DNA of 64,000 nucleotides from Pseudobutyrivibrio sp. Lineage in GTDB: Bacteria > Bacillota > Clostridia > Lachnospirales > Lachnospiraceae. Shown one piece after another: positions 20,087 to 33,572 of this stretch. The stretch spans positions 1 to 64,000 of the forward strand of contig JAILGH010000003.1 in the NCBI GenBank assembly GCA_024697025.1, read 5' to 3'. How positions within the stretch are numbered: the first letter of the stretch is position 1; every line of letters starts with the position of its first letter. The notes under the pieces are model-generated. The model was not told the DNA's origin. It ran no database searches and saw only the letters and a program-made list of their open reading frames with translations. Position numbers and translations under genes: made by a program.

Positions 20087-20277
20087 AAAAAATTTACTCT
20101 CCTTAAATCCCTTATTACTTATATTTCTACCTAATTACTATATCATTTTCAGGGGGCAAATTCTATGTATTTATCTATTAAGCTTTAGGCTGTTTGAAGC
20201 GTCTATGTTATTCACATTTCCTCCCTCCACTGTATTGTGTTAAAATGATTTGAAACAAGTATTATTTGGAGGTTATT

Positions 20278-20781
20278 ATGGGCGAAAGACTCACACAAGG
20301 TGATATTGATAAAATACAAGCAGAAATAGATGAAAGAAAATTGGTTATTCGACCAAAGCTTTTGGAGGAAGTTAAAGAGACTAGAGCACAAGGCGATCTT
20401 TCTGAAAACTTTGAATATCACGAAGCGAAGCGTGCAAAGAATATGAACGACAGCCGTATCCGCTATCTGGAAAAAATGCTTCGCTATGCAGAGGTTGTTG
20501 ACGATAGTAGTGCTGACGATGAGGTAGGCATCAATAACACTGTTACCATCTATATTCCAGAGGATGACTGCGAAGAAACTTACAAACTTGTTACTTCCAT
20601 TCGCGGCAATTCCTTAAAAGGTCTTATCTCCATCGAATCCCCTCTGGGCGCCGCAATCCGTGGCAAACACGTAGGCGATAAAGTTATGGTTCAAGTTAAT
20701 GCAGATTATTCATACGAGGTAGAAATCCGCGCAATTGATAAGTCTACCACTGATGAAGATGATAGAATAAAAAGATACTAG
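20278..20781 (+). CDS. greA: Transcription elongation factor GreA
   Basis: A 167-residue protein from ATG 20278, chosen because TTGGAGG lies 6 bp upstream; a start four codons earlier would put that site inside the gene. The N-terminal coiled-coil finger (KETRAQGDLSENFEYHEAK) carries the acidic tip residues that stimulate RNA cleavage in backtracked RNA polymerase. The C-terminal FKBP-like domain contains SPLGAAIRGKHVGDKVMV. Its position is isolated on the plus strand with a terminator after it. Confidence 0.95.
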   Translation: MGERLTQGDIDKIQAEIDERKLVIRPKLLEEVKETRAQGDLSENFEYHEAKRAKNMNDSRIRYLEKMLRYAEVVDDSSADDEVGINNTVTIYIPEDDCEETYKLVTSIRGNSLKGLISIESPLGAAIRGKHVGDKVMVQVNADYSYEVEIRAIDKSTTDEDDRIKRY

Positions 20782-20800
20782 TCAAATTTGATTAATTAAA

Positions 20801-20832
20801 AAAGGTTGTTCACCAAGCTGGGAACAACCTTT
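20801..20832. terminator. Bidirectional terminator between greA and the 71-residue membrane protein
   Basis: AAAGGTTGTTC pairs with GAACAACCTTT across a 10-base loop; T runs on both strands serve the two convergent genes. Confidence 0.9.
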
Positions 20833-20847
20833 TCTTTAACTATTCTA

Positions 20848-21063
20848 TTAGTTTTCTTTTTTACTTGCTCCATTTTTTGCCAAAACACATACTCCTACCA
20901 ATTCAGAAATAGCTGCCATCCCTAATAATACTCCTGAAATAACATCTTTTACGTTACTTCCATTTACTCGATTATGAATAATAAAAAGCCCAAATCCTAA
21001 CAATATAAATAGTAATCCTGCGGCCATCTCATTCTTCTTTTCTGTCTTCTTGTTTTGTTCCAT
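20848..21063 (-). CDS. Small membrane protein, two transmembrane helices
   Basis: A 71-residue protein. After a Lys-rich start (MEQNKKTEKKNE) come a helix LLFILLGFGLFIIH, a short polar loop and a second helix VLLGMAAISELVGVCVLA, with a Lys-rich C-terminus. No family recognised. It sits at the edge of the small-peptide-rich island that begins here, and a link to it is only positional. Confidence 0.6.
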   Translation of the reverse strand: MEQNKKTEKKNEMAAGLLFILLGFGLFIIHNRVNGSNVKDVISGVLLGMAAISELVGVCVLAKNGASKKEN

Positions 21064-21178
21064 TTTTTATAGAACCCTCCTTATTTATTTCTTCATATTG
21101 TACACATTCTAGCATAACGGTATTTATACGTCACCATTATTTCTACGTCTTTTATTTTGCTCTGTTTGGCATAAAACA

Positions 21179-21212
21179 AAGAGGTTATTAATATAAATAT
21201 TAACAACCTCTT
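21179..21212 (-). terminator. Terminator after the 16-codon ORF
   Basis: AGAGGTTGTTAATA and TATTAATAACCTCT form a long hairpin with a short loop, followed on the minus strand by TTTGTTTT. It lies 23 bp past the small ORF. Confidence 0.8.
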
Positions 21213-21234
21213 ATCTTTCTTTTTTATTTTGTAT

Positions 21235-21285
21235 TTAGCACACACATACTGTTGCCATAATTAATGCTACAATAACATCATTCAT
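21235..21285 (-). CDS. Putative 16-residue hydrophobic peptide
   Basis: ATG at 21285 follows AAAGGAGAGGGAACG, a good ribosome-binding site, and encodes MNDVIVALIMATVCVC before a stop and a strong terminator. The product is one short hydrophobic segment with two C-terminal Cys. The site, length and terminator suggest a translated micropeptide or leader peptide. Its function is unknown, and it is too short to be judged by composition alone. Confidence 0.4.
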   Translation of the reverse strand: MNDVIVALIMATVCVC

Positions 21286-21424
21286 CGTTCCCTCTCCTTT
21301 CAATATTCGGTTTATATATTTCTTTATATAAATAATAAACCCTTACACTTCATAGATAATCACAATAGATTAATCAGGCAGTTTTCGGGAACAAACAACT
21401 GATTTTTATAAATATTTTTTCCAA

Positions 21425-21598
21425 TTATACTTCTTTAGTTACTACAGGCTTTCCTTCTTCATTCACCAACACAGTCAATCCACCAGCATATCCATCGCGG
21501 TGAAACATGTAATTAACACCTGTTTGCTTGTCTACCCAAATTTCTACACTACTGGTTCTTCCTTGACTATAAATCTTCTCAAATCTTTCTTCTTTCAT
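21425..21598 (-). CDS. DUF6440-like small protein
   Basis: A 57-residue protein from ATG 21598, which has AAGGAG at good spacing. The sequence ERFEKIYSQG, then VDKQTGVNYMFHRDGYAGGL and a C-terminus with NEEGKPVV matches the pattern of DUF6440 proteins (a ligand-independent beta-rich fold with a Gly-Tyr-Ala-Gly-Gly-Leu motif), common in Firmicutes and of unknown role. Monocistronic. Confidence 0.6.
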   Translation of the reverse strand: MKEERFEKIYSQGRTSSVEIWVDKQTGVNYMFHRDGYAGGLTVLVNEEGKPVVTKEV

Positions 21599-21652
21599 TT
21601 TGTTATTCTCCTTATGTAATTTACTTAGAAACAATATTATTTTACCTCATTA

Positions 21653-21680
21653 AAAGAGGTGCCACAAACGACACCTCTTT
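21653..21680 (-). terminator. Terminator after the 26-codon ORF
   Basis: AAAGAGGTG pairs with CACCTCTTT, followed by TTTAATG on the minus strand; it lies 3 bp after the ORF stop. Confidence 0.75.
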
Positions 21681-21683
21681 CTC

Positions 21684-21764
21684 TTACTGATTCTTCTTGC
21701 TTTTTTTTGTTAAATATAATGCTAGCATTGATAAAACAAAAGCTATAATTATTGCACGGCTCAT
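21684..21764 (-). CDS. Putative 26-residue membrane micropeptide
   Basis: ATG at 21764 follows AGGAGGTGGAATT, a very strong site. The product begins MSRAIIIAFVLSMLALYLT and ends in a Lys-rich tail (KKSKKNQ): one membrane helix with positive-inside tail. Such peptides can be type I toxins, regulators of membrane proteins or bacteriocin accessories. It is immediately followed by a terminator. It resembles in design the 32-residue peptide about 240 bp upstream, although the sequences differ. Confidence 0.5.
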   Translation of the reverse strand: MSRAIIIAFVLSMLALYLTKKSKKNQ

Positions 21765-21853
21765 AATTCCACCTCCTGCTCCCAAACAACAATTGTCGTT
21801 ACTTAATTTTATGGTATCACGATTTTCTCTACGCTATTGATTTAGTCGTAAAC

Positions 21854-21919
21854 GGTGAATTTTTGACAACATTGGTTTGTTTTTTCATTGCTAGAATCCA
21901 TTCACTCTAAAAATTCACC
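21854..21919. repeat. Inverted repeat between two micropeptide genes
   Basis: GGTGAATTTTT at 21854-21864 is repeated inverted as AAAAATTCACC at 21909-21919, with a 44-base spacer. It lies in the 240-bp interval upstream of the 26-codon gene. It may be a regulatory site or an RNA structure. Confidence 0.4.
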
Positions 21920-21955
21920 TTTTTACTCCGTTATATTGTTCTTGTCTATACAAAG

Positions 21956-21980
21956 AATCCAGTGCTGTACACACTGGATT
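21956..21980 (-). terminator. Terminator at the end of the daptide-like operon
   Basis: AATCCAGTG and CACTGGATT with a 7-base loop, then TTCTTTGT on the minus strand. It lies 24 bp past the 32-codon ORF that follows the M50 protease gene. Confidence 0.7.
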
Positions 21981-22003
21981 TCTAAGAATTCTTTATATTG
22001 CTC

Positions 22004-22102
22004 TTACTTTCTCTTTTGAAGCTTTCTTCTTTGATGTCTCATCCTAACAAGAATAATTGAGCTAATTGCAACTACTGCTGCTACTATTCTAATGTAATCC
22101 AT
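22004..22102 (-). CDS. Putative 32-residue membrane micropeptide, last gene of the daptide-like operon
   Basis: ATG at 22102 follows AGGAGG and lies 14 bp after the M50 protease stop. The product starts MDYIRIVAAVVAISSIILV and ends with a strongly basic tail containing RHQRRK and QKRK. One transmembrane helix with a cytosolic basic tail is likely. It lacks the Thr C-terminus and the leader motif of the precursor peptides, so an immunity or accessory role is more likely than a product role. The function is inferred only from its place in the operon. Confidence 0.5.
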   Translation of the reverse strand: MDYIRIVAAVVAISSIILVRMRHQRRKLQKRK

Positions 22103-22115
22103 AGAATCCTCCTTA

Positions 22116-23267
22116 CTATATCATGCTTAACACTCTATTTCTTTGATTTATATACATGTCTATATATCTCTTTAATAGTGTTACAATGTCCTTTATTACA
22201 GCTATTAATACAAATCCAACTACAAATCCGCAAGCACTATCCATATTTTTAGATGCCAGAAATGCACAAGCTGAATGAACACTTATTACCCAGAAAAATG
22301 GTCTAAATGCTAAAATGATAAATCCATAAATAAAGAGCATCATCTTTTTTTGTGGATTGCAATCAATATCTTTCAATTCTTTGTGACTGAATAATCCAGT
22401 TAAAAACATAAGAATGCTTTTATCCATTAGATTATCTACCCCAAACAAAGCTGTTGCTATCCAATATCCATCCAACTTAACAAATGGAATTAGATTAAAT
22501 GCTACAAAGCCTATATTAGCATAATAATAGAACAACAATAGTGGAACATCATATCCTAACATTTTTAGAACGAAGTATGCCAAAAAGCCTAACGTTCCAA
22601 AGGCATAATTTACTGAAATACCTGCGACCGCGACACTAAAACTCTTTGTTCTATTATTAAACAAATAAATATCACTCACGTCGCAAAAGAAACATGGTAC
22701 AAAGAAAAATAGCATTAATCCCATCGATGTGATCTTACCACCATGTCTATAACATGTTATCGCATGTCCGAATTCATGAAACATGGTAGTAATAATCATC
22801 ATCACATAAAAAACTACATAATTAACAATAGAAAGATGCATACAATCTAACGTACCCTGATATAACATCTCAGTATTCTTAAACATAATAGTAAAAGTAC
22901 TGATTGTTAATGCTAATAGCAGTAATGCTCCTTTGAAAGAAAACAACTCTCTAATAACCATTGGAACTTTTTGCAATGATTCATTTGGATTAAAATTACA
23001 TATCGTAATTTTTGTTATATCTTTTCGCTTGTTTTCGTCGGCATCAGCATTCAGAAATCCCCATTCTTCAAATTTTCCGTATATTTCAACCTTTTCCTGG
23101 GTGTTTAACTCTTCGACGCTTTCATCTACTTCTTCCTCTAAGCCTAAGCACGAAAACAAGTAATTTGTTTCTCTCGTTCCTAACTTAACATAACACTTAT
23201 TGTTTGTGTTCTTTACTGTGTAGATTTCTGCATCTAATTTTATAATTTCTAAATGATTGTACTGCAT
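22116..23267 (-). CDS. M50-family intramembrane zinc protease (daptide-cluster type)
   Basis: A 383-residue integral membrane protein. Residues 1-90 are soluble and PqqD-like (VKLGTRETNYLF, then KFEEWGFL), suggesting substrate-peptide binding. From residue 110 there are about six helices with the zinc site HEFGH (164-168) and the third ligand in PFVKLDGYW (Asp266). Proteases of this kind process or export leader-bearing RiPPs, and one is a standard member of daptide clusters. The ATG follows GGAGGAAAT and lies only 16 bp past the first precursor-like gene. Role inferred: removal of the leader from the peptides encoded directly upstream. Confidence 0.85.
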   Translation of the reverse strand: MQYNHLEIIKLDAEIYTVKNTNNKCYVKLGTRETNYLFSCLGLEEEVDESVEELNTQEKVEIYGKFEEWGFLNADADENKRKDITKITICNFNPNESLQKVPMVIRELFSFKGALLLLALTISTFTIMFKNTEMLYQGTLDCMHLSIVNYVVFYVMMIITTMFHEFGHAITCYRHGGKITSMGLMLFFFVPCFFCDVSDIYLFNNRTKSFSVAVAGISVNYAFGTLGFLAYFVLKMLGYDVPLLLFYYYANIGFVAFNLIPFVKLDGYWIATALFGVDNLMDKSILMFLTGLFSHKELKDIDCNPQKKMMLFIYGFIILAFRPFFWVISVHSACAFLASKNMDSACGFVVGFVLIAVIKDIVTLLKRYIDMYINQRNRVLSMI

Positions 23268-23282
23268 ATTTCCTCCACAATA

Positions 23283-23432
23283 TTAGGTGAGCACAACTAC
23301 TCCAACTGCTACACCTGCACCAACCGCTACACCTGCGATAAATGCGCCATCTCCAAACTCTTCAGCTGCTTCCATTTCCTCAAACTTTGTGTTTGTATCC
23401 TTATTTGGATTGTTTTTCTTCTTATCAAACAT
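23283..23432 (-). CDS. Daptide-like precursor peptide 1 (49 residues, C-terminal Thr)
   Basis: ATG 23432 follows AAAAGGAGAAAACAAATT. The leader is Lys/Asn-rich and contains KFEEMEAAEEFGDG, a motif shared with the next two peptides. From about residue 30 the sequence is Gly/Ala/Val-rich and helical (FIAGVAVGAGVAVG) and it ends VVVLT. There is no Cys or Ser in the core, so lanthionine or sactionine chemistry is excluded. A hydrophobic core ending in Thr is the hallmark of daptide precursors, whose terminal Thr is oxidatively decarboxylated, aminated and dimethylated. Confidence 0.85.
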   Translation of the reverse strand: MFDKKKNNPNKDTNTKFEEMEAAEEFGDGAFIAGVAVGAGVAVGVVVLT

Positions 23433-23486
23433 AATTTGTTTTCTCCTTTTTTGATTTGATTTTATTGATTGATGTTTTAATTACTC

Positions 23487-23633
23487 TTAGGTTAAAGCTA
23501 CTACTCCACCTACGATGGCTACGCCTACAGCTACTCCTTCTACGAAGTCTCTGCCGTTACCATACTCCTCTACCTGCTCCATCTCTTCGAACTTTGTCTG
23601 TGTCTTCTGCTCTTCTAAATTTTTGTTTTCCAT
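23487..23633 (-). CDS. Daptide-like precursor peptide 2 (48 residues, C-terminal Thr)
   Basis: ATG 23633 follows GAAAGG. The leader carries TKFEEMEQVEEYGNG, closely matching precursors 1 and 3. The core region DFVEGVAVGVAIVGG is hydrophobic and the C-terminus is VVALT. It has no Cys. Related but non-identical to its neighbours, it looks like one of a family of co-produced helical peptides, as in the known daptide locus of Microbacterium, where several precursors share one set of enzymes. Confidence 0.85.
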   Translation of the reverse strand: MENKNLEEQKTQTKFEEMEQVEEYGNGRDFVEGVAVGVAIVGGVVALT

Positions 23634-23657
23634 GTTTTTCTTTTTCCTTTCTATTTT

Positions 23658-23813
23658 TTAAGTTAAAATTACAATTGATCCTACAACCGCCCCAGCTGCT
23701 GCACCTTTTACAAAATCTGCAGTTCCATACTCTGATGCCTGTTCCATTTCTTCAAACTTCACATCATTATTTGAGTCACTGCCTTCTAAAAGTTCTTCTT
23801 CTCTCTCTGACAT
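23658..23813 (-). CDS. Daptide-like precursor peptide 3 (51 residues, C-terminal Thr)
   Basis: ATG 23813 follows AAGGAGGAAATAA. The acidic leader (MSEREEELLEGSDSNND) leads into the shared motif VKFEEMEQASEYGTADF, then a hydrophobic segment VKGAAAGAVVGS and a C-terminus IVILT. The three peptides align at FEEME, at the aromatic-Gly that follows, and at the final Leu-Thr; the leader N-termini differ. It is not visible to gene callers with a high length cutoff. Confidence 0.85.
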   Translation of the reverse strand: MSEREEELLEGSDSNNDVKFEEMEQASEYGTADFVKGAAAGAVVGSIVILT

Positions 23814-23851
23814 TTATTTCCTCCTTTCTTACTCTTTTTATATTTAATGCC

Positions 23852-24001
23852 CTATAACAGATGCACTAAAAGCATTACACCAGCTACTAACGCAGAGCTT
23901 ATTACAGTTGTTACACCTAAAGCTCCAAAGCTAAACTCTTCTGATTTCTCAAGTTCTTCATACTTGAGGTTTGTAGTATTTGTTGAACCAGTTTCTTTCA
24001 T
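23852..24001 (-). CDS. Daptide-like precursor paralogue 4 (49 residues, no C-terminal Thr)
   Basis: ATG 24001 follows AAAAGGAGGAAG, 12 bp past the aminotransferase stop. The leader motif is a variant of the other three (LKYEELEKSEEFSFGA), followed by a hydrophobic region GVTTVISSALVAGVMLL, but the peptide ends VHLL, not LT. It cannot undergo the C-terminal Thr chemistry. It may be an unmodified partner peptide, an immunity peptide, or a precursor that has lost its modifiable residue. Confidence 0.75.
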   Translation of the reverse strand: MKETGSTNTTNLKYEELEKSEEFSFGALGVTTVISSALVAGVMLLVHLL

Positions 24002-24012
24002 TCTTCCTCCTT

Positions 24013-25317
24013 TTAATTGATTATCCTTAATAATGATTTTTTTATTCTCTTTATTACCTCATACATCTCTACATCTGTAATTACGTATGGTAAAAGCATT
24101 ACTAAACAAGTGGATAACCCATCTATACAACTCCATTCTGAAATTACACCATTCTTTTTTATTAATTCAACCAACTTAATCAAATCGTAGAATGGTAATG
24201 TTTCATTTCCTTCTTTATCTCTTAACTCAACAGCAAACATCATTCCCTCTGAACGTAAATCATATACTTGAGAAAATTCATTTCCAATCTCGTCATTAAA
24301 TAATTCTTTAAAAAACTTGCTTTTTTCCTTTACCGTATTTACGTAATCACCGTCAATCAGTTCTTTTATAGTGGCCTGTGCTGTTGCACAACACAACGCA
24401 TTAGCATTTTGAGTAGAAAGATGAAATAAAAACTTGTCGCTGAATTCTTTAGTAATTTTCCTACCGACGGCTATTGCAGCCAACGGTAACGTTCCGTTGT
24501 TAATTCCCTTAGACATTGTTATGATGTCTGGTTTAATACCATATTCTTCATATGCAAACATACTTCCTGTCCGGCAAAACCCTGTGGCAATCTCATCACA
24601 TACGATAATTACATCATTTTCTCGAGCAAACTCATCTATCTTATCTATGTACCATTTTGGTAGTCTGATAACCCCAGCTGATCCCAAAATAGGCTCAAAT
24701 ATAATTCCGGAAATCTTGCCTTTAAGATTTTCTAACTCTAATTCTAGTTCCTTTTCCTGATTAATTTTCCAATCTTCAGAATGAGAAGTTTTGATATAGT
24801 CTTTTTCAAATGGAAGCTTTAATTCATAAATACCGCTTAGTAAAGGACCATATCCCTCGCGTTCAGTTCCATCATAGTTGCTGCATGACATAGAGCCATA
24901 ATAACTTCCATGATATGAGTGCTGTAAAACAGCAATTCCATTGGCGTTACTTTTTCGCTTTAAATCCGAGTATTTTCTTATAAGCTTTATTGCTATCTCT
25001 ATTGCCTCTGAACCCGAGCAAGCATATATAATCTTATCTATATCTTCATGTAATAAACCTTTTAATAGATTTCCCAACTCTTCTGAGGCTTCCGATTCAC
25101 ACTCGCACGGATTAACATAGCTAAATTTTTCAACCTGAGTATATAAAGCCTTTTTTATGGCTTCATTACTATATCCCAATGGCACATTCCACAATCCACT
25201 ATTTGCGTCTATATACTCTTTTTGACGTTTATCGAATAGATGTATTCCTTCTGCTCTATCAATCTTAATCTTATCTTCTTCTGGTGTGCTTAGTGGATAC
25301 CATACCGCCTTACTCAT
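24013..25317 (-). CDS. Class III PLP-dependent aminotransferase (daptide-cluster type)
   Basis: A 434-residue enzyme. Class III motifs: ACSGSEAIEIAIKL (cofactor phosphate site), HSYHGSYYGSMSCS, IFEPILGSAG, VCDEIATGFCRTG with the PLP-ring Asp, and TMSKGINNGTLPLAA with the PLP-binding Lys. Family members use omega-amino or ketone substrates. In daptide biosynthesis such an enzyme aminates the ketone left after oxidative decarboxylation of the terminal Thr. The start overlaps the methyltransferase stop as TAATG, so the two are translationally coupled. Substrate assignment is inferred from the cluster. Confidence 0.85.
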   Translation of the reverse strand: MSKAVWYPLSTPEEDKIKIDRAEGIHLFDKRQKEYIDANSGLWNVPLGYSNEAIKKALYTQVEKFSYVNPCECESEASEELGNLLKGLLHEDIDKIIYACSGSEAIEIAIKLIRKYSDLKRKSNANGIAVLQHSYHGSYYGSMSCSNYDGTEREGYGPLLSGIYELKLPFEKDYIKTSHSEDWKINQEKELELELENLKGKISGIIFEPILGSAGVIRLPKWYIDKIDEFARENDVIIVCDEIATGFCRTGSMFAYEEYGIKPDIITMSKGINNGTLPLAAIAVGRKITKEFSDKFLFHLSTQNANALCCATAQATIKELIDGDYVNTVKEKSKFFKELFNDEIGNEFSQVYDLRSEGMMFAVELRDKEGNETLPFYDLIKLVELIKKNGVISEWSCIDGLSTCLVMLLPYVITDVEMYEVIKRIKKSLLRIIN

Positions 25318-26117
25318 TATGCTGCTTCCTCTTTTTTATATACACAAACCTTCATGGTTATTTCATCTTCATTAACATCATAAGCATGATGCATTTTAAA
25401 AGATGTCTGTCCAATAACAGATTCTATAAAATCGTCTGTTATTATTTTCTTTTCAGAACTAGCCAAATACTTGCTTCCATCTGCAGTTTCAACATACATA
25501 TTTACAACTGCTTTATCTGGAATAAAATTATTAAACTCTTGAAATACAAAATAATATTTCTCATCCAAATTTATATTAGTTAGAATATTTGATGCATATA
25601 CCGTCTCTGTTACTTGATCAGTTCTATAGTCAAACATCAACCTTCCATTTGGATTCAACCAGCTATAAATCTTTTCAAATAAGCTTTTTAATCTATCTTC
25701 GTCATCCGACAATAAACAAATTGTTGTTGAAGGAATCGTTATCAAATCATATTTTTTATCTGTTTCATATTCAAAAACATCAGCCTGTATAATGTTCAAA
25801 CGCTTCTTTATCCTCTGTGGAAGCTTGCTAACATTTTCATTAAATCTAGCAATCATAGATTCTGATATTTCTACCCCATCAACATTGAATCCCTTCTGTG
25901 CCAAAGGAATCATGTAATTGCTACCATCCCCAGCTGCTATCTCCAAAATATTTTTACCTACGTAAAAACCATTTTCTGCATATAATTCTTTTATTTCATT
26001 ATTACCAGCCAAGGCATTATATACATTTGAAAAAATATCATCATACAACCCGCATTCTTTAATTTTTCCATCATATAATTTCCTTAACTCTGAGAAAAAC
26101 CCAAAATACTTATTCAA
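25317..26117 (-). CDS. Class I SAM-dependent methyltransferase (daptide-cluster type)
   Basis: A 266-residue soluble enzyme. Motif I is ILEIAAGDGSNYMIPLA (about residues 57-73), followed by the acidic end of strand 2 (VDGVEIS) and motif IV YDLITIPSTT. The C-terminal half, rich in beta strands, probably binds the substrate. In the daptide pathway a SAM methyltransferase dimethylates the new C-terminal amine, and I infer that role here from the neighbours. It overlaps the upstream gene by 8 bp and the aminotransferase by 1 bp. Confidence 0.8.
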   Translation of the reverse strand: MNKYFGFFSELRKLYDGKIKECGLYDDIFSNVYNALAGNNEIKELYAENGFYVGKNILEIAAGDGSNYMIPLAQKGFNVDGVEISESMIARFNENVSKLPQRIKKRLNIIQADVFEYETDKKYDLITIPSTTICLLSDDEDRLKSLFEKIYSWLNPNGRLMFDYRTDQVTETVYASNILTNINLDEKYYFVFQEFNNFIPDKAVVNMYVETADGSKYLASSEKKIITDDFIESVIGQTSFKMHHAYDVNEDEITMKVCVYKKEEAA

Positions 26118-27618
26118 TCATTCCACCCGCTTTCAATGTCTTCATACCTTGATTAACAACTTCCTTTGCAACAACATTTTCGACAGACAAGTAATTTGCC
26201 ATCTCCTCTACTATTGCATTTTCTGTCTCTCCATTAGCATGTGCTTCCATTAGGAATACATACTTTGATTCCAACTTCAGTAGTTTTCCTGTTCTTATAT
26301 CAAAATAATAATAATTGCCATTTATATTAAATACATTGATTGATTTTTTACTTGCTTTTGACCTAGGATAAACTAATCGTCTATCTCCAGTTGAAAATCT
26401 CACGCTAGAAACATCTTTGCATGTCTTTCCATTTTTCTTAATATAACAAGTAAGTTGATTTTGAAAAATATAATCAGAAACCATAGGATATTTTTCCATA
26501 AAGTCAATGTAATCTTCCTTTGTAATTCCTTCAGGAAGACAGGCGCAATTGGCATTTCTACCTGTTTCTGATAATGCTCTATCATACAATCTGTTTGCTT
26601 CAATTATTCTCTTTTCTGGTTCCATTTTCACTGAGCCAATTGATACATTTGAAGTCAAACAAGGATATATTTCTTCATTCTCAATTCTAAATCTCAACAG
26701 CTTTTTCAACCCGCAATTAGATGTCCATCTGCATGAATCTACAATTTTTTTGTCGTAGATATCAACTAATCCCGTCTTTATATATTCATCTAAATCGCTA
26801 GAAAATGCGGTTAAATCTTCTTGGTTTTCTATTTTTAAATAATATGTAATGTCTTCTTTTAGTTGATTATTTCTTTTTAAATAAACGAAATCTTTATATG
26901 AACAAATACGATGTTTTAAATCAATATTATCTGAGTCAATCATTACGCAATCTTCATAGATTGTATGTACATGCTGTATTGTTTCTTTAGTTGTCTTGTT
27001 TTCATTTGGGCAAATCACTGCTCCATTCATGTCAACATACTGATTAATGTCATCTGGACACTTATCATTTAATAACACATGCTTTGCCAATGTATTATCT
27101 ATGCCACCTGGATAAGTTCCTGTCATGAATGCAACAAATCCATTTTTCATTGCATTTTTGTATTCATAATCTATCTCAATCCTTGACTCATATAAGTCAT
27201 CAAATATAGTCTCTAAATCTGCTTCTTCGATTTCATCTAAAACTCTTAATTGATCTCCATGTTTGATAACTACTATTCCTGCCCCTTCTTGTATAAAGCC
27301 TTTTGGCTCTGCTTCCTCATCTTGAATAAACACTGTTTTTTGATATTCATCCATAAGAACTTTGGCCAAACTCTCTATAAGCTTTAAATTTCCTGGATGA
27401 TGTGGCATATAGATATACTTGTCATCTTCATCTCCAATAGTTTCTACCAATTCTTCGAAGGAGTTTTCTGAATAATAAAATGGGACATTTACCATTATTT
27501 CTTCGGGAATATCCGGAAAAGATTTTGGATTATCAAAAGAATACAATCCGCTTTTATAGTTAATATTTACATATAATACTTCATCTACTTTTTCTGCCAC
27601 TTTTAACATATAGTCCAT
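26110..27618 (-). CDS. Candidate RiPP-recognition protein with PqqD-like C-terminal domain and Cys cluster
   Basis: A 502-residue protein of no family I can name with certainty. Residues about 430-500 follow the PqqD/RRE pattern (IRTGKLLKLESKYVFLMEAH, then an acidic helix and a final helix ending in GGMIE), a fold that binds RiPP leaders. Residues 296-360 carry five Cys (296, 302, 320, 358, 360) in a SPASM-like or zinc-binding arrangement. The N-terminal 290 residues are uncharacterised; there is no CxxxCxxC, so it is not a radical SAM enzyme. Daptide loci contain a large recognition protein of this kind, and I infer leader binding and possibly a part in Thr decarboxylation. Confidence 0.6.
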   Translation of the reverse strand: MDYMLKVAEKVDEVLYVNINYKSGLYSFDNPKSFPDIPEEIMVNVPFYYSENSFEELVETIGDEDDKYIYMPHHPGNLKLIESLAKVLMDEYQKTVFIQDEEAEPKGFIQEGAGIVVIKHGDQLRVLDEIEEADLETIFDDLYESRIEIDYEYKNAMKNGFVAFMTGTYPGGIDNTLAKHVLLNDKCPDDINQYVDMNGAVICPNENKTTKETIQHVHTIYEDCVMIDSDNIDLKHRICSYKDFVYLKRNNQLKEDITYYLKIENQEDLTAFSSDLDEYIKTGLVDIYDKKIVDSCRWTSNCGLKKLLRFRIENEEIYPCLTSNVSIGSVKMEPEKRIIEANRLYDRALSETGRNANCACLPEGITKEDYIDFMEKYPMVSDYIFQNQLTCYIKKNGKTCKDVSSVRFSTGDRRLVYPRSKASKKSINVFNINGNYYYFDIRTGKLLKLESKYVFLMEAHANGETENAIVEEMANYLSVENVVAKEVVNQGMKTLKAGGMIE

Positions 27619-28382
27619 CCCCCATCTAGGATAATATTTTGTCCTGTTATAATTGATGCTTCATCTGATTCTAAATACATAATTGCATTACAAACATCAA
27701 TTGGTTTAGCGTATTCTCTAAGTGGAATTTTTGATAAGTATTCCTTTTTTCCTTTAGAGCTCTCCAATATTTCATTGTTCTTTTCAGATTTAATAAACGT
27801 TGGGGAAACTATATTCACTCGAATTTTATATTTCGCCCATTCTAACGCTAATTCTTTCGCAAGATGAATTAATCCCGCTTTGCTAGCACAATAAGGTGCC
27901 CTATCTATATTTGCAACAACCCCATGCTGTGAAGCTACTCCTAAAATACTTCCACCACTACTATCTAGCATTTTTTTTGCAATGATTTTAGCTGTCATAA
28001 AGAAACCTTTAAGATTTATATCCATGATTAAATCCCATTTCTCTTCATCTACCTCTAAGGCAGGCAGTAAAATATTAACGCCCGCCAGGTAGATATAAGA
28101 AGTAATAGATCTTTTTTCCAGCTTCTTTGAAAACTCTTCCAAGCTTTCTTTTTTTAACACATCCAATTCAACACATTCATAGTTTACTGATGGATACTCT
28201 ATCTTTAATTTCTCAACCAAATTTTTTAATAACTCAAAGTTCTTACCTGATTCAGTTACCACTATGTCAGAATATTTTTCCGATAATAACGGTATTAATT
28301 CTATTCCTATGGTGCTGTTAGCTCCTACAACAACTGCACTACTCTGTTCTGACCTTCCAGAGTTTTCTCTTCTTGATTCCAT
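27603..28382 (-). CDS. Short-chain dehydrogenase/reductase (daptide-cluster oxidoreductase)
   Basis: A 259-residue Rossmann enzyme. The cofactor loop is VVVGANSTIGIE, the NAG-type motif is LAGVN, and the catalytic triad is visible as Ser in VASQHG and Tyr/Lys in YCASKAGL. The C-terminal ITGQNIILDGGW is typical of classical SDRs. In this cluster it most likely oxidises the beta-hydroxyl of the C-terminal Thr, which would prompt decarboxylation to a ketone; this is inference from the daptide model. It overlaps the permease gene by 44 bp and the downstream gene by 16 bp. Confidence 0.8.
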   Translation of the reverse strand: MESRRENSGRSEQSSAVVVGANSTIGIELIPLLSEKYSDIVVTESGKNFELLKNLVEKLKIEYPSVNYECVELDVLKKESLEEFSKKLEKRSITSYIYLAGVNILLPALEVDEEKWDLIMDINLKGFFMTAKIIAKKMLDSSGGSILGVASQHGVVANIDRAPYCASKAGLIHLAKELALEWAKYKIRVNIVSPTFIKSEKNNEILESSKGKKEYLSKIPLREYAKPIDVCNAIMYLESDEASIITGQNIILDGGWTIC

Positions 28383-29211
28383 AGCTTACAACGCCTCTTC
28401 TATAAATACGGCTGCAAATGATACTGATTACCACTACTTCTGCAATTTGAATTAATACTAAAACAACCGCTGTGCTCATTGATATTGTCTGCAAATCATT
28501 AACTGATACTCCAAGAATTGGTAAAGCAAAAGGCATGTATGTGATAACTGTAAGAACTGGACTTGATGCACCTCTCATCATTGCTAACCCAATGAAATAG
28601 ACCACCATAATCACTAGCACTACAGGCATCATTAACTGAGTTGAGTCCTGTGCGTTGTCTGTATATGATGCAAGTGCTGCAAAAGCAAAAGCATACATCA
28701 TGAATCCAAACACTATCGAGCCAACTATCAATACCATCGCTGAACCACTAATTAAATCAGATACATTAACAGCATTTTTCGATTGCTTAACAAATAATGA
28801 ACCGATTGCTCTGACTACACCCCATATAGCCAACTGTTGAACAACTGCTACCATATAACCTACTATTTTGCCTGCAAGGAGTTCCATCGGTTTTACGTAG
28901 CATAACAGCGTCTCTATTATTCTTGCGCTTTTCTCTTCTACTACCGAATTTGAAATGCTAGCCCCATAAATCATGATTAGCAAAAACAGTATTACAACCA
29001 CTATTAACGGAACAATAGAATGTAACTCGCCCTGAGAAATCATCTGCTGTTTACTTATGCTATCTTCTCCTAAAAATCTCTTTAAAATACTGTCCAAATT
29101 CAGTGATGCAATTACCCCAATTATTCCTACTATTGTCGAAATCAAATACCATCTTGCAGTAAGAATTTGGTTGTATGTAAATCTTGTTACCTTTAAAATC
29201 TTATTATTCAT
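28339..29211 (-). CDS. ABC-2 type transporter permease (NatB-like)
   Basis: A 290-residue membrane protein with about six helices, starting at ATG 29211 (AAGGAG 10 bp upstream, overlapping the ATPase stop); an upstream TTG is possible but unsupported. It carries the NatB/YhaP-type signature region NSVVEEKSARIIETLL before the second helix. Together with the ATPase it should export the peptide product or protect the producer from it. It is located at the head of the biosynthetic operon. Confidence 0.85.
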   Translation of the reverse strand: MNNKILKVTRFTYNQILTARWYLISTIVGIIGVIASLNLDSILKRFLGEDSISKQQMISQGELHSIVPLIVVVILFLLIMIYGASISNSVVEEKSARIIETLLCYVKPMELLAGKIVGYMVAVVQQLAIWGVVRAIGSLFVKQSKNAVNVSDLISGSAMVLIVGSIVFGFMMYAFAFAALASYTDNAQDSTQLMMPVVLVIMVVYFIGLAMMRGASSPVLTVITYMPFALPILGVSVNDLQTISMSTAVVLVLIQIAEVVVISIICSRIYRRGVVSYGIKKRKLWKVRTE

Positions 29212-30115
29212 TATCACCAAGCTCCTTTAAGAAAATTGTCTGCATATCGGCTTTTTTATTTGTAATTTTTTCCACCTCAAGTCCCTGCTCTAAGATGTCA
29301 CGATATAGTGCATTTAAATCTTCTTTATCTTCGAATCTGACTGTATAAGTACCAAAATCGATTGATACAACCTTCAAATTGTTCTTCTCAATCAAATCTT
29401 CAATGTTTCCATCTGTCTTGATTTCTACTTCATCATCTCTTGAGTATTTTTTTATTAATCCATCGATTGTATCGTTTTCAATAACTTCGCCTTCTTTTAT
29501 CATTACGATATAATCGCAAAGTTCTTCAACATCTTCCATTCTGTGGCTTGAAAATAAAATAGTTGTTCCTTCGTCTCGAAGCCTTTTTACAACCCCTTTA
29601 AATAATTCTATATTTACTGGGTCAAGTCCACTAAATGGTTCATCCAAAATAACAATCTTTGGTCTATGAAGAATTGCACTTATAAGCTGAATCTTCTGTT
29701 TGTTCCCTTTAGATAATGATTTTACCTTCCTTGTGGAATAGGAAGAGATTCCAAACTCATTCAGTCTCTTACATATTTCCTTAGTAGCTTCTCTTTTTGA
29801 CATTCCATTTAATGTTCCAAAGTATAGAAGCTGATCTTTTACTCTTGAATTAAGATAAAGTCCTCTCTCTTCAGGAAGGTATCCAATCTTAACTCCAGAT
29901 TTTTTCAGCTCTTTTCCGTCATAGGTAATTGTGCCTTCGTCCGGTTCAATGATTCCCATGATACTTTTAATCGTTGTTGTCTTCCCTGCCCCATTTCGAC
30001 CAAGGATTCCTAATATTTTTCCTTCAGCTGCTTCAAAATCAATATTATTAACAGCTTTTTTCTCTCCATAAGTTTTTGATATTCCTGAAATTTTTAAACT
30101 CATATTTCTCTCCAT
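29204..30115 (-). CDS. ABC transporter ATPase (NatA-like)
   Basis: A 303-residue ATPase. Walker A GILGRNGAGKTTTIKS, signature VKSLSKGNKQKIQLI, Walker B VILDEPFSGLDPVN and the H-loop FSSHRMEDVEEL are all intact. The C-terminal 80 residues are the regulatory domain of the NatA type. It is the first gene of the biosynthetic operon, following a terminator at 30219-30244, so its own promoter should lie in the 100 bp upstream. Role inferred: peptide export or self-immunity. Confidence 0.9.
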   Translation of the reverse strand: MERNMSLKISGISKTYGEKKAVNNIDFEAAEGKILGILGRNGAGKTTTIKSIMGIIEPDEGTITYDGKELKKSGVKIGYLPEERGLYLNSRVKDQLLYFGTLNGMSKREATKEICKRLNEFGISSYSTRKVKSLSKGNKQKIQLISAILHRPKIVILDEPFSGLDPVNIELFKGVVKRLRDEGTTILFSSHRMEDVEELCDYIVMIKEGEVIENDTIDGLIKKYSRDDEVEIKTDGNIEDLIEKNNLKVVSIDFGTYTVRFEDKEDLNALYRDILEQGLEVEKITNKKADMQTIFLKELGDNE

Positions 30116-30218
30116 ATAGACTAGGTTTTTGTTTACAGTGATATACTACATCCACTATCCTGCCTTTTTTCTATAATCGATTAATAGGTGTTGTTTGGAG
30201 AGTAAACTGCATAAAAAA

Positions 30219-30244
30219 ATGGAGTGAATTTTCATTCACTCCAT
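30219..30244 (-). terminator. Terminator between the regulator gene and the daptide-like operon
   Basis: ATGGAGTGAA and TTCACTCCAT form a 10-bp perfect stem with a 6-base loop, followed by TTTTTTT on the minus strand. It separates the two-component genes from the biosynthetic operon. Confidence 0.9.
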
Positions 30245-30259
30245 TAAACACATTTCTAT

Positions 30260-30970
30260 TTACACTCTTGATAAGTATTCTGCATAAGCATTTTTAAATA
30301 ATTTGTATCGCTGTCTACTTATAGCCACCATCTCATCATCCTGAAGTACAAGATCATTATGCGTATAAGAATCAACGTACTTCATATTAATTAAAAACGA
30401 CTTATGGCATCTAAAAAAGTTTTTAGAATTTATTTTTTCTTCCACCGCAGCAAGAGTTTCAATACACTCAATTACATTCTTTTTATTTATCAAATGTATT
30501 ATGCAATATTTCCCATCACCCTCAATGTACGATATCTGGTTTTCTTTTATAAAGTGATTCTCTCCACCAGATTTAACACATATAGTTTTTTCATTCTTAA
30601 GACTATCCATAAACGCATCCATGGCGTTATATAACTTTTCTTCATCAAGTGGCTTTGGCAAAAATCTAAAAGTGGCTACCTCAAATGTTTCATATACAAT
30701 ATTTGTATAGCTTGATAAAAATATAATTGTTATATCGGCATTCTTCTTGCGAATGGCTTTGGCAATCACCATTCCATCTGCGCCTTTATCTTCAAATTGA
30801 TAATCTAGAAAAACTAAGTTGAAATCATCTACTTCTTCTAATAGGCTCTCGCCATTTTCAAATTGCTTTATCTTACAATCAATATCTTTTTGTATAGTAT
30901 ACTTTACTAATAAATCTTCGTTCTTTTTTCTAATATATTCAGAATCATCGCAAATTGCTATTTTTATCAT
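30260..30970 (-). CDS. LytTR-family (AgrA-like) response regulator
   Basis: A 236-residue regulator. The receiver domain has IAICDDSEYI, the phospho-acceptor Asp in LVFLDYQF (about residue 56) and KPLDEEKL. The LytTR DNA-binding domain follows, with ISYIEGDGKYCIIH and FFRCHKSFLINM. Regulators of this type bind repeats upstream of peptide-related operons. It is paired with the AgrC-like kinase immediately upstream and lies just upstream of the biosynthetic operon, its likely target. Confidence 0.9.
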   Translation of the reverse strand: MIKIAICDDSEYIRKKNEDLLVKYTIQKDIDCKIKQFENGESLLEEVDDFNLVFLDYQFEDKGADGMVIAKAIRKKNADITIIFLSSYTNIVYETFEVATFRFLPKPLDEEKLYNAMDAFMDSLKNEKTICVKSGGENHFIKENQISYIEGDGKYCIIHLINKKNVIECIETLAAVEEKINSKNFFRCHKSFLINMKYVDSYTHNDLVLQDDEMVAISRQRYKLFKNAYAEYLSRV

Positions 30971-30993
30971 TCAGCCACACTCCCTAATTCCCT

Positions 30994-32307
30994 CTAATCT
31001 AACATAAATGAAATAATAGATTTAAAAACGCCCTCTTCATAAGATAGTTGCATTTGACCATCATATCTCTTTGCCGCTCGTTCAATGTTTGCTAATCCAA
31101 AGCCATGTATTTCTTTTTCTTCTTTAGTTGTTTCTATATAATTAGCCTTTATTGATATTTCTTCGCTGGGGTTCTCAGTTTTTAATATCCAAGCGTTCTT
31201 TCTAAGTATAGAAGAAATATTTATAACCTTCTGTCCATCTAGCTTTGCACAAGCCTCAATTGCATTATCCAATACATTGGATAACACAATAACCATGTCC
31301 GTATCTTTTACCCGTTCTGCAGGTATAAAGCCTTCAAATTCAATTTTGGTGTTATAATGCTGAGCTTTGGTCTGCTTTGTACTCAAAATAGCGTCTGCTA
31401 TAAAATTCCCTGAATCGTATTTTACCTTTGATTGATTGCATACTTCTTGCAAATCTTCAATATAACTTAAAGCTTTTTCCCTTTGATCATTCTCAATCAT
31501 ACTGTGCAAGGCAAGAAGCAAATTTTTAATATCATGTCTAAATTTTTTTGATTCATTCTCTTTTTCAATCAACTGATTATAATACTCAGTCAACTGTTGC
31601 ATTTGCTCCTCTAAAAGGCCTTTTATATTTTCTAAAGAACTCTTACTTCTAGTAATTATTATTGTTCGTATAATTGTAATTACTACGCATATAACGATGA
31701 TGTTAACATAATTTTTATAGGTTGAAGACATAGTTTCTTCTATACATATGTATGTCTCCCAAGGTGCCAACGCATATAACAATAGAATAAAAACTATAAA
31801 ATCAAATGCTTCTAGTTCTGCAATCCACAGTTTAATAATGCTCCGTTTTCTGAGAATCTGCAAAATCATTATCAACGTTAATAAAATTAACTCCCCGGCA
31901 ATTTCAGATAAGTAGGCGCCTATCCAATTAATTGACCAGTTAAAGCCCAGCCTCAATAGTATTAGTGCCGTGTTAGTACCTGTAAATGAAACTAACTCAA
32001 CAAAAAATGCAATAAACGCAACATGCCTAAGTTTCAATTTGTAAAAACCAGACATAACTATCGAAGATTTAAGAAAAATAAATAAAGTTAGAATATTTCT
32101 CCAGACGACATTATAATTCCATGTAGCATATCCATAGATGGCCAATATACCAAAGAATATCAAAAATCTTATTATACAATCACTTTTTTTGAACTCTTTT
32201 TTAGGCAATACTAAAAATTGACTCAATAGTATCTTTACATTCAATAATTCTAAGAGCCCCCAAATAGCAATTATAGTATAAAACAATGCATAGTCGTTCT
32301 TTAACAT
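30994..32307 (-). CDS. AgrC-like (HPK10) sensor histidine kinase
   Basis: A 437-residue membrane kinase. The N-terminal 210 residues form six to seven helices as a sensor domain of the peptide-pheromone class. A coiled-coil linker leads to the phospho-acceptor in FRHDIKNLLLALH (His about residue 257). The N-box is NVLDNAIEAC and the G-box is HGFGLANIERA. I found no agrD-like gene beside it, so the signal may be the operon's own peptide product or a pheromone made elsewhere. GAGGAATA precedes ATG. Confidence 0.9.
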   Translation of the reverse strand: MLKNDYALFYTIIAIWGLLELLNVKILLSQFLVLPKKEFKKSDCIIRFLIFFGILAIYGYATWNYNVVWRNILTLFIFLKSSIVMSGFYKLKLRHVAFIAFFVELVSFTGTNTALILLRLGFNWSINWIGAYLSEIAGELILLTLIMILQILRKRSIIKLWIAELEAFDFIVFILLLYALAPWETYICIEETMSSTYKNYVNIIVICVVITIIRTIIITRSKSSLENIKGLLEEQMQQLTEYYNQLIEKENESKKFRHDIKNLLLALHSMIENDQREKALSYIEDLQEVCNQSKVKYDSGNFIADAILSTKQTKAQHYNTKIEFEGFIPAERVKDTDMVIVLSNVLDNAIEACAKLDGQKVINISSILRKNAWILKTENPSEEISIKANYIETTKEEKEIHGFGLANIERAAKRYDGQMQLSYEEGVFKSIISFMLD

Positions 32308-32400
32308 TATTCCTCTACTATCCCTTCGCGTTTATTATTGTTACTATACCATAATTTTGCCCTTTTTTATATAAAAAATACATCTCGTATAATATATTAT

Positions 32401-32436
32401 AAAAAGTCTTCCGCCCCATGTGGCAGAAGACTTTTT
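32401..32436 (-). terminator. Terminator after the 150-residue protein gene
   Basis: AAAAAGTCTTC and GAAGACTTTTT with an inner GCC/GGC pairing; it overlaps the stop codon at 32435 and has T runs on both strands. Confidence 0.8.
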
Positions 32437-32887
32437 ATAGTTTTTCTTTTCTCGCAAAAACATCAATTATCAAATAATCATCCTGGGTTATTACTTGTTT
32501 TACGTCACAATACTTTTCTCCATTATTCTTATATCCCTTATTTGATATATAACAGTCTAATTCGTCTATTCTTTCCTTTATTTCAGCCCATCCTGCTTCT
32601 ATCCTGGTACGAAACGCTGGCCACACTTTTATAGCTTTATAATTATCCTCCGCTTCGTCACAATAATAAAGTTGATATAAATCCTGATTAATTACAACTA
32701 ATATTTTTTGCTCAACGTCTTTTTTTAGACCTGTCAATTTTTCATACAGCAAATCTTTCTCGATAGTTTCTTTTTTATTGTATTTAAAAATTAACTCTTC
32801 TTGCTCAGCTACTTTAATCGCGAGCACCTCCAATCTTTTAGTGGCCTCCGCCAATACCGATGATGAATCCGCCCAATCCCATAGCAT
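32435..32887 (-). CDS. Coiled-coil protein of unknown function, possibly frameshifted at its start
   Basis: A 150-residue reading frame from ATG 32887. Residues about 10-65 form a charged coiled coil (EVLAIKVAEQEELIF and KDLLYEKLTGLKKDVEQ); the C-terminal part is mixed alpha/beta with no known motif. The ATG has GGAGG only 3 bases upstream, poor spacing. A second ATG 5 bases on, in another frame, has ideal spacing and opens a 14-codon hydrophobic ORF ending inside this gene. The annotated N-terminus may therefore be wrong. It neighbours three micropeptide genes, and no function is assigned. Confidence 0.55.
   Translation of the reverse strand: MLWDWADSSSVLAEATKRLEVLAIKVAEQEELIFKYNKKETIEKDLLYEKLTGLKKDVEQKILVVINQDLYQLYYCDEAEDNYKAIKVWPAFRTRIEAGWAEIKERIDELDCYISNKGYKNNGEKYCDVKQVITQDDYLIIDVFARKEKL
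32838..32882 (-). CDS. Overlapping 14-residue Gly/Ile-rich ORF
   Basis: ATG 32882 lies 8 bp after AAAGGAGG, the same spacing as in the three micropeptide genes upstream. It encodes MGLGGFIIGIGGGH in a frame different from the 150-residue protein, which it overlaps. It is either a real micropeptide or the true N-terminus of the larger protein, joined by a frameshift. Confidence 0.35.
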   Translation of the reverse strand: MGLGGFIIGIGGGH

Positions 32888-33006
32888 TTTCCTCCTTTTC
32901 TCTACATCTTGATAATATGATACCAATCTTTTTTTCTACTATTTTTTATTGGAGTAAATGGTAGTTTTTTGGGAGTGTTTGGTATTTTTACATAAGAATA
33001 TTCAAA

Positions 33007-33042
33007 AAATAAATGACACCATATAATTGGTGCCATTTATTT
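33007..33042 (-). terminator. Hairpin after the micropeptide genes
   Basis: AAATAAATGACACC and GGTGCCATTTATTT pair with one mismatch; a T run follows on the minus strand. It lies 28 bp past the last of three micropeptide genes. Confidence 0.8.
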
Positions 33043-33069
33043 CTCTTATCAAAACTCTCTTTTTACTTA

Positions 33070-33171: not shown

Positions 33172-33196
33172 AGCTTTTTCCTCCTTTACATTTATA

Positions 33197-33280: not shown

Positions 33281-33312
33281 AGCTTTTTCCTCCTTTATTT
33301 TTAAATATTATA

Positions 33313-33384: not shown

Positions 33385-33530
33385 TTGTTTCTCCTCCTTC
33401 ATATAAATAATTAACTTGTAAATATATTATGTACTATTATTTTGCTTTTATTTTTTTATGGAGTCATTAACACCTTTTATGTAACATTAAGTACTTTTTC
33501 TTTTATCCTTAAACCTTTCATAGAAAAAAA

Positions 33531-33550: not shown

Positions 33551-33572
33551 ATAATCATTACATATCCGATCT

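What the first reader, a model, noticed from the sequence alone, without database searches (positions are those of the whole stretch)
22004..30115. Daptide-like RiPP cluster in a Lachnospiraceae genome
The sequence shows one operon with an ABC exporter, a short-chain dehydrogenase, a 502-residue protein with a PqqD-like C-terminus, a SAM methyltransferase, a class III aminotransferase, small hydrophobic peptides ending in Leu-Thr and an M50 intramembrane protease. Daptides, first characterised from the actinomycete Microbacterium paraoxydans, need this set: oxidative decarboxylation of a C-terminal Thr, transamination and dimethylation. The peptides have no Cys, which excludes lanthionine and sactionine classes. 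A rumen-type Firmicute producer with its own AgrC/AgrA-like control would extend the class; I do not know whether this exact locus has been described.
Basis: partly seen in the sequence, partly recalled or inferred. Interest (0 to 1): 0.92.

Follow-up and report, generated by a model that had tools for sequence, protein, structure and literature searches.

The report
Daptide gene cluster in Pseudobutyrivibrio relative
A bacterium of the Pseudobutyrivibrio genus carries a full set of genes for daptides, small peptides whose tail end is turned into an amine; the class was already known, but here one of the four peptides lacks the amino acid the enzymes need, and the genes sit in a spot where two related species carry other peptide factories.

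Summary
The observation mostly holds. A minus-strand operon (22004-30115, plus a sensor/regulator pair up to 32307) encodes exporter, SDR (DapC), RRE-bearing accessory protein (DapB), methyltransferase (DapM), aminotransferase (DapD), four leader/core peptides and an M50 protease (DapP). The best NCBIfam hits of DapD, DapM and DapP are the daptide families, all below cutoff. DapD lies in a supported branch with nine other daptide DapDs (and one outsider). Peptides A3 and A4 match precursors of a daptide locus in another genome of the phylum. The operon recurs in Pseudobutyrivibrio sp. UBA1225. Bacillota daptide clusters with this oxidoreductase type are in print (2023), so the class is not extended to a new phylum.

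Unusual here: (1) precursor A1 ends in Leu-Leu (Ile-Phe in UBA1225), not Thr, yet is conserved, so it is probably not modified; (2) Phe/Tyr stands where the known cleavage-site Pro should be; (3) relatives of DapB carry a SPASM-like Cys region ahead of the RRE; (4) the operon fills a variable site between atpC and a peptidase gene, where two congeners hold the same sensor/regulator head before radical-SAM peptide genes. Chemistry, activity and the roles of A1 and the small peptides are untested.

The parts
30994..32307 (-). GHKL sensor histidine kinase (AgrC-like)
   Evidence: PF14501 1.4e-23
30260..30970 (-). LytTR response regulator (AgrA-like)
   Evidence: PF04397 2.1e-18, PF00072 1.6e-11
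30218..30245 (-). terminator-like hairpin between regulator and exporter genes; a similar stem is in L015 and L111
   Evidence: inverted repeat; alignment; comparison
29204..30115 (-). ABC exporter ATPase
   Evidence: PF00005 1.5e-30; 87% identical in L015
28339..29220 (-). ABC-2 type permease
   Evidence: PF12698 9.7e-20
27603..28382 (-). DapC-type short-chain dehydrogenase, proposed oxidative decarboxylase of C-terminal Thr
   Evidence: PF13561 1.2e-43; SQ[HN]G motif in 9 of 9 daptide-locus SDRs and 0 of 27 other SDRs; tree
26110..27618 (-). DapB-type accessory protein: part of a SPASM-like Cys region (about residues 296-360) and a C-terminal RRE (about 429-497)
25317..26117 (-). DapM-type N-methyltransferase
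   Evidence: NF041820 4.1e-34, 118 bits of 175 cutoff; next family 6e-10
24013..25317 (-). DapD-type PLP aminotransferase
   Evidence: NF041821 8.1e-95, 318 bits of 450 cutoff; tree
23852..24001 (-). precursor A1, leader YEELE, core ends VHLL (no Thr)
   Evidence: translation; conserved in L015, dN/dS 0.15
23658..23813 (-). precursor A2, leader FEEME, core ends ILT
23487..23633 (-). precursor A3, leader FEEME, core ends ALT
   Evidence: matches an L039 precursor, score 100, 0 of 200 shuffles
23283..23432 (-). precursor A4, leader FEEME, core ends VLT
   Evidence: matches an L039 precursor, score 92, 0 of 200 shuffles
22116..23267 (-). DapP-type M50 intramembrane leader peptidase (HEFGH at 164-168)
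   Evidence: NF041824 4.5e-62, 210 bits of 300 cutoff; alignment
22004..22102 (-). 32-aa one-helix peptide with cationic tail; candidate immunity peptide (a guess)
   Evidence: 47% identical in L015, dN/dS 0.59, so weakly constrained
21684..21764 (-). 26-aa one-helix peptide with cationic tail behind an AGGAGGTGG stretch; candidate immunity peptide (a guess)
32435..32926 (-). DUF5975 protein, first gene of the shared regulatory head
   Evidence: PF19400 9.2e-6; homologues at the same site in L111, L112 and L124

Best explanation
This is a Bacillota-type daptide biosynthetic operon. The GHKL/LytTR pair switches it on. The leader motif [FY]EE[ML]E of A1-A4 is bound by the RRE of DapB. DapB presents the C-terminal Thr of A2, A3 and A4 to the SDR DapC, which oxidatively decarboxylates it to a ketone; DapD transaminates it and DapM dimethylates it, giving a C-terminal Dmp amine. 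DapP removes the leader, probably after Phe/Tyr at the E[F/Y]-[G/S] junction, and the ABC exporter releases hydrophobic peptides. A1 cannot follow this route because it has no Thr; it is probably cleaved and exported unmodified, as a partner or a signal. Shown here: gene content, homology, conservation, RRE-like domain, DapD and DapC grouping. Inferred from characterised homologues: all chemistry, leader binding, cleavage, export. Inferred with little support: the role of A1, immunity by the small cationic-tail peptides, and what the kinase senses.
For: Best NCBIfam hits of DapD, DapM and DapP are the daptide families NF041821, NF041820 and NF041824. DapD: 10 of 10 daptide-locus DapDs, Streptomyces MpaD included, lie on one branch at SH-aLRT 97 with 1 of 27 others inside it (same). 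DapC: the 9 daptide-locus SDRs are one side of a branch at support 85 against 27 others, and SQ[HN]G is in 9 of 9 against 0 of 27. RRE-like domain in DapB. The operon from kinase to 32-aa peptide is repeated in UBA1225. Pathway chemistry: PMC10036551 and passages of PMC12670281.
Against: All three NCBIfam daptide hits are below the curated cutoffs, and DapB has no NCBIfam hit. One of four precursors lacks Thr. The Pro at the known cleavage site is absent. The trees are quick ones with long branches (MpaD, L042, L041), support for DapC is only 85, and a non-daptide-context aminotransferase (L044) sits inside the DapD branch. The structure model outside the RRE is unreliable. No product data.
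Confidence: 0.92

Rival explanations
1. The enzymes make a different end group: the pathway stops at the ketone or primary amine, or the methyltransferase acts at the N-terminus.
For: DapM has the lowest ratio of score to cutoff of the three named enzymes (118/175 = 0.67, against 0.70 and 0.71). Hominicin, a Bacillota daptide, also has a dimethylated N-terminus, linked to a second methyltransferase (PMC10036551 passage).
Against: Full B, C, D, M set, with B-M-D adjacent as in L006, L018, L042 and L043; only one methyltransferase gene in the operon; daptide_MTase is the clear best family (next 6e-10).
Confidence: 0.06
2. A1 is a decaying precursor that lost its Thr and has no function of its own.
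For: 18 of 21 leader-bearing ORFs in seven loci end in Thr, so loss from a Thr ancestor is simple; the Thr-less A1 is known from only two species.
Against: A1 is the most conserved of the four precursors between the two species (69% against 58-64%), core included, with dN/dS 0.15, and both species lack Thr in the same way.
Confidence: 0.15
3. A1 is the autoinducer of the adjacent GHKL/LytTR pair rather than a partner of the modified peptides.
For: A1 differs in core from A2-A4 and lies in the operon that the pair precedes; no other pheromone was recognised, but agrB/agrD were not searched for.
Against: Homologues of the pair precede radical-SAM genes in L111 and L112, where no A1-like ORF is among those listed (one strand, parts of each locus), so A1 would not be a signal common to the head.
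Confidence: 0.2
4. The cluster is a degenerate, silent remnant.
For: The genome is a 110-contig assembly, 91% complete; no expression data exist here.
Against: All operon genes are open, and dN/dS against UBA1225 is 0.03-0.19 for the genes and precursors whose synonymous sites are not saturated; the 32-aa peptide, at 0.59, is the exception.
Confidence: 0.03

Closest known systems
Bacillota-type daptide BGCs (described in PMC10036551; likely examples here: L039, and the Priestia megaterium plasmid locus L042)
   Same: SDR-type DapC, DapB-type protein, class III aminotransferase, methyltransferase, M50 protease, ABC exporter, several peptides ending in Thr; A3 and A4 homologous to L039 precursors
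   Different: one conserved precursor without Thr; Phe/Tyr in place of the Pro that L039 has before the core; a GHKL/LytTR pair directly upstream; DapB 502 aa against 815 (L039) and 409 (L042)
Actinobacterial daptides (Microbacterium paraoxydans mpa, by paper; Streptomyces virginiae L043, annotated as daptide)
   Same: same gene set for the pathway; DapD on one branch with L043 MpaD; DapD, DapM and DapP best hits are the NCBIfam daptide families
   Different: SDR instead of the Fe-dependent alcohol dehydrogenase (PMC10036551); window DapB has no NF041823 hit and has Cys residues where L043 MpaB has none
Pseudobutyrivibrio sp. UBA1225 locus (L015 = L124)
   Same: operon in the same order, four precursors including the Thr-less A1, the 32-aa and 26-aa-type peptides
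   Different: 47% (32-aa peptide) to 87% (ABC ATPase) identity; extra regulator and kinase genes upstream
Radical SAM/SPASM peptide maturases
   Same: some DapB relatives (L006, L019 and two more of 11) hit the SPASM model TIGR04085
   Different: CxxxCxxC is in 0 of 11 DapB-type proteins, so radical SAM catalysis is not expected

Membership tests
[quoted passage not shown]
   leader in 4 of 4; Thr in 3 of 4, A1 ends VHLL
daptides | DUF-RRE accessory protein (DapB) | tested here: met
   C-terminal RRE by profile and fold match; aligns with L018 DapB, which hits NF041823 at 4.2e-5. No NCBIfam hit of its own
daptides | NAD(P)-dependent oxidoreductase (PF13561 in Bacillota) | tested here: met
   PF13561 1.2e-43; SQ[HN]G motif and tree
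daptides | daptide-type aminotransferase | tested here: met
   best family NF041821 but under its cutoff; on one branch with nine other daptide DapDs and one outsider, 97
daptides | daptide-type methyltransferase | tested here: met
   best family NF041820, under its cutoff
daptides | intramembrane protease with N-terminal RRE | tested here: met
   NF041824 matched over residues 12-358, under its cutoff; the RRE part was not tested separately
daptides | Pro before the core at the leader cleavage site | tested here: not met
   Phe, Tyr, Tyr, Phe at the aligned position in A1-A4. The paper shows cleavage after the conserved Pro for actinobacterial MpaA1-A3 and does not make it class-defining
daptides | Dmp at the C-terminus of the product (class-defining) | not testable with these tools
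   needs mass spectrometry or NMR
radical SAM/SPASM proteins (DapB) | CxxxCxxC radical SAM motif | tested here: not met
   0 of 11 DapB-type proteins, window included
radical SAM/SPASM proteins (DapB) | SPASM-like Cys domain | tested here: inconclusive
   TIGR04085 matched by 4 of 11 DapB-type proteins at E up to 1, best 8.3e-4, all below the domain cutoff where seen (19.5 and 19.7 of 27 bits); window DapB has no hit and keeps only part of the Cys set

The most novel reading that the evidence does not exclude
The locus is an exchangeable RiPP cassette: in Pseudobutyrivibrio a site between atpC and a conserved M20 peptidase gene carries a DUF5975-kinase-regulator head behind which quite different peptide factories (daptide or radical-SAM type) are swapped. 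The daptide version makes a mixed product of three amine-ended peptides plus one deliberately unmodified, Thr-less peptide, and its DapB is a dead relative of radical SAM/SPASM maturases reused as a substrate carrier.
Probability: 0.35. Interest if true: 0.62.

Novelty: new variant of a known kind. Interest (0 to 1): 0.48.

Why it matters
It places a daptide operon in an anaerobic Lachnospiraceae genus and raises three testable points that I did not find in the parts of the two daptide papers that I saw or searched: a conserved co-encoded peptide that the known enzymes should not be able to modify, a possible origin of the DapB domain of unknown function, and a genomic site where one sensor head fronts different peptide factories.

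Tried and rejected
Rfam scan of the window: 0 matches at gathering score. LytTR operator search by repeats and by comparing four upstream regions: only the terminator-like stem GGAGTGAAT...TCAC recurs (window, L015, L111), no operator. AlphaFold of full DapB with four rows: only the RRE is fairly confident; in Foldseek PLP enzymes and a cobalamin-domain chain rank above the RREs by E-value and no match is under 0.001, so no fold is claimed for the rest. Plasmid search with DapB: no match. Weak DapB hits (E about 1e-5 to 1e-3; L012-L014, L028-L032, L035-L038 among them) were not counted as DapB; of the two that I looked at, L021 is a radical SAM/SPASM protein by Pfam and L022 reads like one (not scanned); the rest were not examined, and G953 (L027/L040) was only read as ORFs. 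In one search the rows 'sp26' and 'duf' used wrong coordinates and are dropped. In one search two hits (window 60258, L019 10280) are dropped as chance.

My first trees each held one wrong-frame row (L061, L100), and one search left out L054, L057 and L045; one search replaced both rows and rebuilt. The DapD result did not change (97); the DapC result improved from two changes to one branch at 85. L045 (same gene as L020) stays out, two aminotransferase and two SDR loci gave no usable ORF, and rows under 300 (DapD) or 200 aa (DapC) were barred.

The 2023 paper states that equivalent enzymes of the two phyla are not phylogenetically close; my DapD branch joins Streptomyces MpaD to them, but on a quick tree with a long MpaD branch, and does not overturn that.

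Papers: PMC10036551, parts 1-3 of 8 plus passages; PMC12338566, part 1 of 7; PMC12670281, passages; all others as search listings. Supplements were not readable. In print or not: the held library has 12 papers with 'daptide' (8 listed); 'daptide' with 'Lachnospir', with 'Firmicutes' and with 'rumen' gives 0 each, 'daptides' with 'Bacillota' gives 1, PMC10036551. One search asked for any 2 of 6 terms and says nothing either way. Supplementary lists of the 483 and 1,034 published BGCs are outside this search. Recalled, from no call: PLP lysine, SPASM Cys pattern, AgrC/AgrA domain make-up, the names greA and pepD.
Full report
WHAT IS THERE. On the minus strand, reading 32307 to 22004: GHKL kinase, LytTR regulator, a terminator-like hairpin, ABC ATPase, ABC-2 permease, SDR, 502-aa protein, methyltransferase, class III aminotransferase, four small ORFs, M50 protease, and a 32-aa one-helix peptide. 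A 26-aa peptide follows at 21684-21764. The stretches upstream of the four small ORFs are purine-rich, with GGAGG before A1 and A2. None of the four contains Cys.

FAMILY EVIDENCE. In NCBIfam the aminotransferase's best hit is daptide_amino (8.1e-95; bioA next at 4e-81), the methyltransferase's is daptide_MTase (4.1e-34; next 6e-10), and the protease's is daptide_HExxH (4.5e-62; next 3.2e-11). All three lie under the curated cutoffs, and the 502-aa protein has no hit. Low scores fit the published divergence between the two phyla (PMC10036551), but that is an argument, not a test.

RELATIVES. A scan of the named genome collection with three DapB-type sequences found three loci: L015 from Pseudobutyrivibrio sp. 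UBA1225 (62% identical DapB), L016 from Anaerocolumna aminovalerica and L017 from Shuttleworthella satelles. L016 and L017 encode the same DapB as L006 and L007. Counts of genomes with a DapB-type match at E up to 0.001, the window's own included: 3 of 397 in the family (single-protein query), 2 of 29 in the genus, 7 of 391 in the class, 7 of 398 in the phylum, 1 of 11 and 6 of 146 in two other families. Several of the class, phylum and last-family matches are weak and at least one is a radical SAM/SPASM protein, so these are upper bounds. L015 repeats the operon gene for gene, with identities from 47% (32-aa peptide) and 56% (kinase) to 87% (ABC ATPase).

TREES. After replacing one wrong-frame row in each first tree: DapD, 10 daptide-locus sequences and 27 others; the 10 lie on one branch with SH-aLRT 97 together with one aminotransferase (L044) from a locus that, read from its ORFs only, has no daptide set. 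DapC, 9 daptide SDRs and 27 others; the 9 are one side of a branch at 85. The active-site stretch SQ[HN]G is in 9 of 9 daptide SDRs and 0 of 27 others. Both are quick trees with long branches.

PRECURSORS. A leader motif [LIVMFYA][EQKSR]E[MLIV]E followed by a hydrophobic core was searched in the window and eight other loci. After dropping two chance hits, 21 ORFs remain in seven of the nine (window, L015, L006, L007, L018, L020, L039; none in L041, and none kept in L019); three of the L039 ones are identical copies. 18 of 21 end in Thr; the three that do not are A1 of the window, A1 of L015 and one L007 ORF ending in Cys. One further L039 peptide and the three L042 and four L043 peptides, which the filter missed or was not run on, all end in Thr. 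A3 and A4 align across leader and core with two L039 precursors (scores 100 and 92, 0 of 200 shuffles each). L039 has TAP or AAP before the core; the window has EEF (A1, A4), SEY (A2) and EEY (A3). The predicted cut after Phe/Tyr is an inference from this alignment.

A1. It shares the leader (YEELE) but its core, from SFGALG on, ends in Leu-Leu, and in L015 in Ile-Phe. It is the best conserved of the four (69%), with dN/dS 0.15. Against peptides of other loci its best alignment (L018) runs over leader and early core only. The published enzymes need a C-terminal Thr: seven replacements and an appended Ala gave no mass change (PMC10036551), and PMC12670281 calls Thr the only strict requirement. 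A1 should therefore stay unmodified. Published daptides act together as haemolysins in some combinations, so an unmodified partner is one idea; a signal is another.

DapB. The C-terminal domain has three strands (429-449) and three helices (451-497), block pLDDT about 53-90, and matches TbiB1 and TfuB1 with probability near 1 and target TM about 0.7. Before it, the long and short clostridial relatives share a Cys pattern ending in a CxxC...CxxC-like stretch; the window and L015 proteins keep C296, C302, C320 and C358 but not the full set. TIGR04085 (SPASM) is matched by 4 of 11 DapB-type proteins at E up to 1, best 8.3e-4; radical SAM maturase and PqqD-chaperone models also appear. CxxxCxxC is in 0 of 11. 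In Streptomyces MpaB (L043) the aligned stretch looks like the same segment without Cys. I read this as a SPASM-like relic; the evidence is sequence only and weak for the window's own protein. The word SPASM is absent from the main texts of PMC10036551 and PMC12670281.

GENOMIC SITE. atpC (ATP synthase epsilon by Pfam) and an M20 peptidase gene (called pepD by recall) flank the operon. In 24 of 29 genomes of the genus both are on one contig, 1.1 kb (G785) to 45.7 kb (G792) apart, median 5.5 kb; in the other five the contig breaks or atpC was not found. In G785 only a 77-aa ORF and a 167-aa ORF (greA-like by eye) of at least 60 aa lie between. I fetched the 23 other intervals (G782 lacking about 0.7 kb, G792 about 7.6 kb) and searched them with window proteins at E up to 1e-4: the DUF5975-kinase-regulator head is present in G784 (UBA1225), G780 and G787, so in 4 of 24 with the window (regulator 58-69%, kinase 44-56%, DUF5975 29-57% identical). 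In G780 (L111) three radical SAM proteins, a PqqD-like protein and ABC genes follow; in G787 (L112) two radical SAM proteins (one nearest the PapB ranthipeptide maturases, 3.4e-59, 201 bits of 340), Cys-bearing small ORFs, a subtilisin-like protease and ABC genes. G779, G798 and a second set in G784 have only remote (about 30%) kinase/regulator matches. Four cases are few: transfer, swapping and common regulation are inferences.

SMALL CATIONIC-TAIL PEPTIDES. Short one-helix ORFs with a positive tail occur in 6 of 9 daptide loci at the thresholds used; L006, L020 and L039 have none. Immunity is a guess.

VERDICT. A genuine daptide cluster of the already described Bacillota type, in a genus for which I found no report in the held library, with unusual features that deserve a bench test.

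Noticed in passing
window 20086-33851; L110-L133: The interval between the M20 peptidase gene and atpC is a variable-cargo site in the genus (24 of 29 genomes measurable); the DUF5975-kinase-regulator head precedes daptide genes in two and radical-SAM peptide genes in two of these 24.
   Followed up: partly
L019 7850-11878: A 797-aa DapB-type protein (weak SPASM and PqqD hits) lies beside a radical-SAM-type ORF with CxxxCxxC and near a 986-aa ORF, with no aminotransferase recognised in the listed ORFs; DapB-type scaffolds may serve other RiPP classes. The neighbours were not scanned.
   Followed up: no
L006 6708-8012; L018 17026-18411; L020 16325-17629: Three other clostridial daptide loci carry a protein with CxxxCxxC (B12-binding and radical SAM domains confirmed for L006 and L018; L020 not scanned); none was seen in the window's operon.
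   Followed up: partly
L073 8782-10092 (= L044): Aminotransferase 43% identical to window DapD in a locus with no daptide set recognised among its ORFs; sits inside the daptide DapD branch.
   Followed up: partly
L007 11423-16231: The Shuttleworthella satelles daptide-type locus has extra 633-aa and 472-aa ORFs, a second M50-like ORF and a leader-bearing peptide ending in Cys.
   Followed up: no
window 21235-21285: Very short ORF (MNDVIVALIMATVCVC, 16 aa) behind an AAGGAGAGG stretch and before an inverted repeat, downstream of a DUF6440 gene.
   Followed up: no
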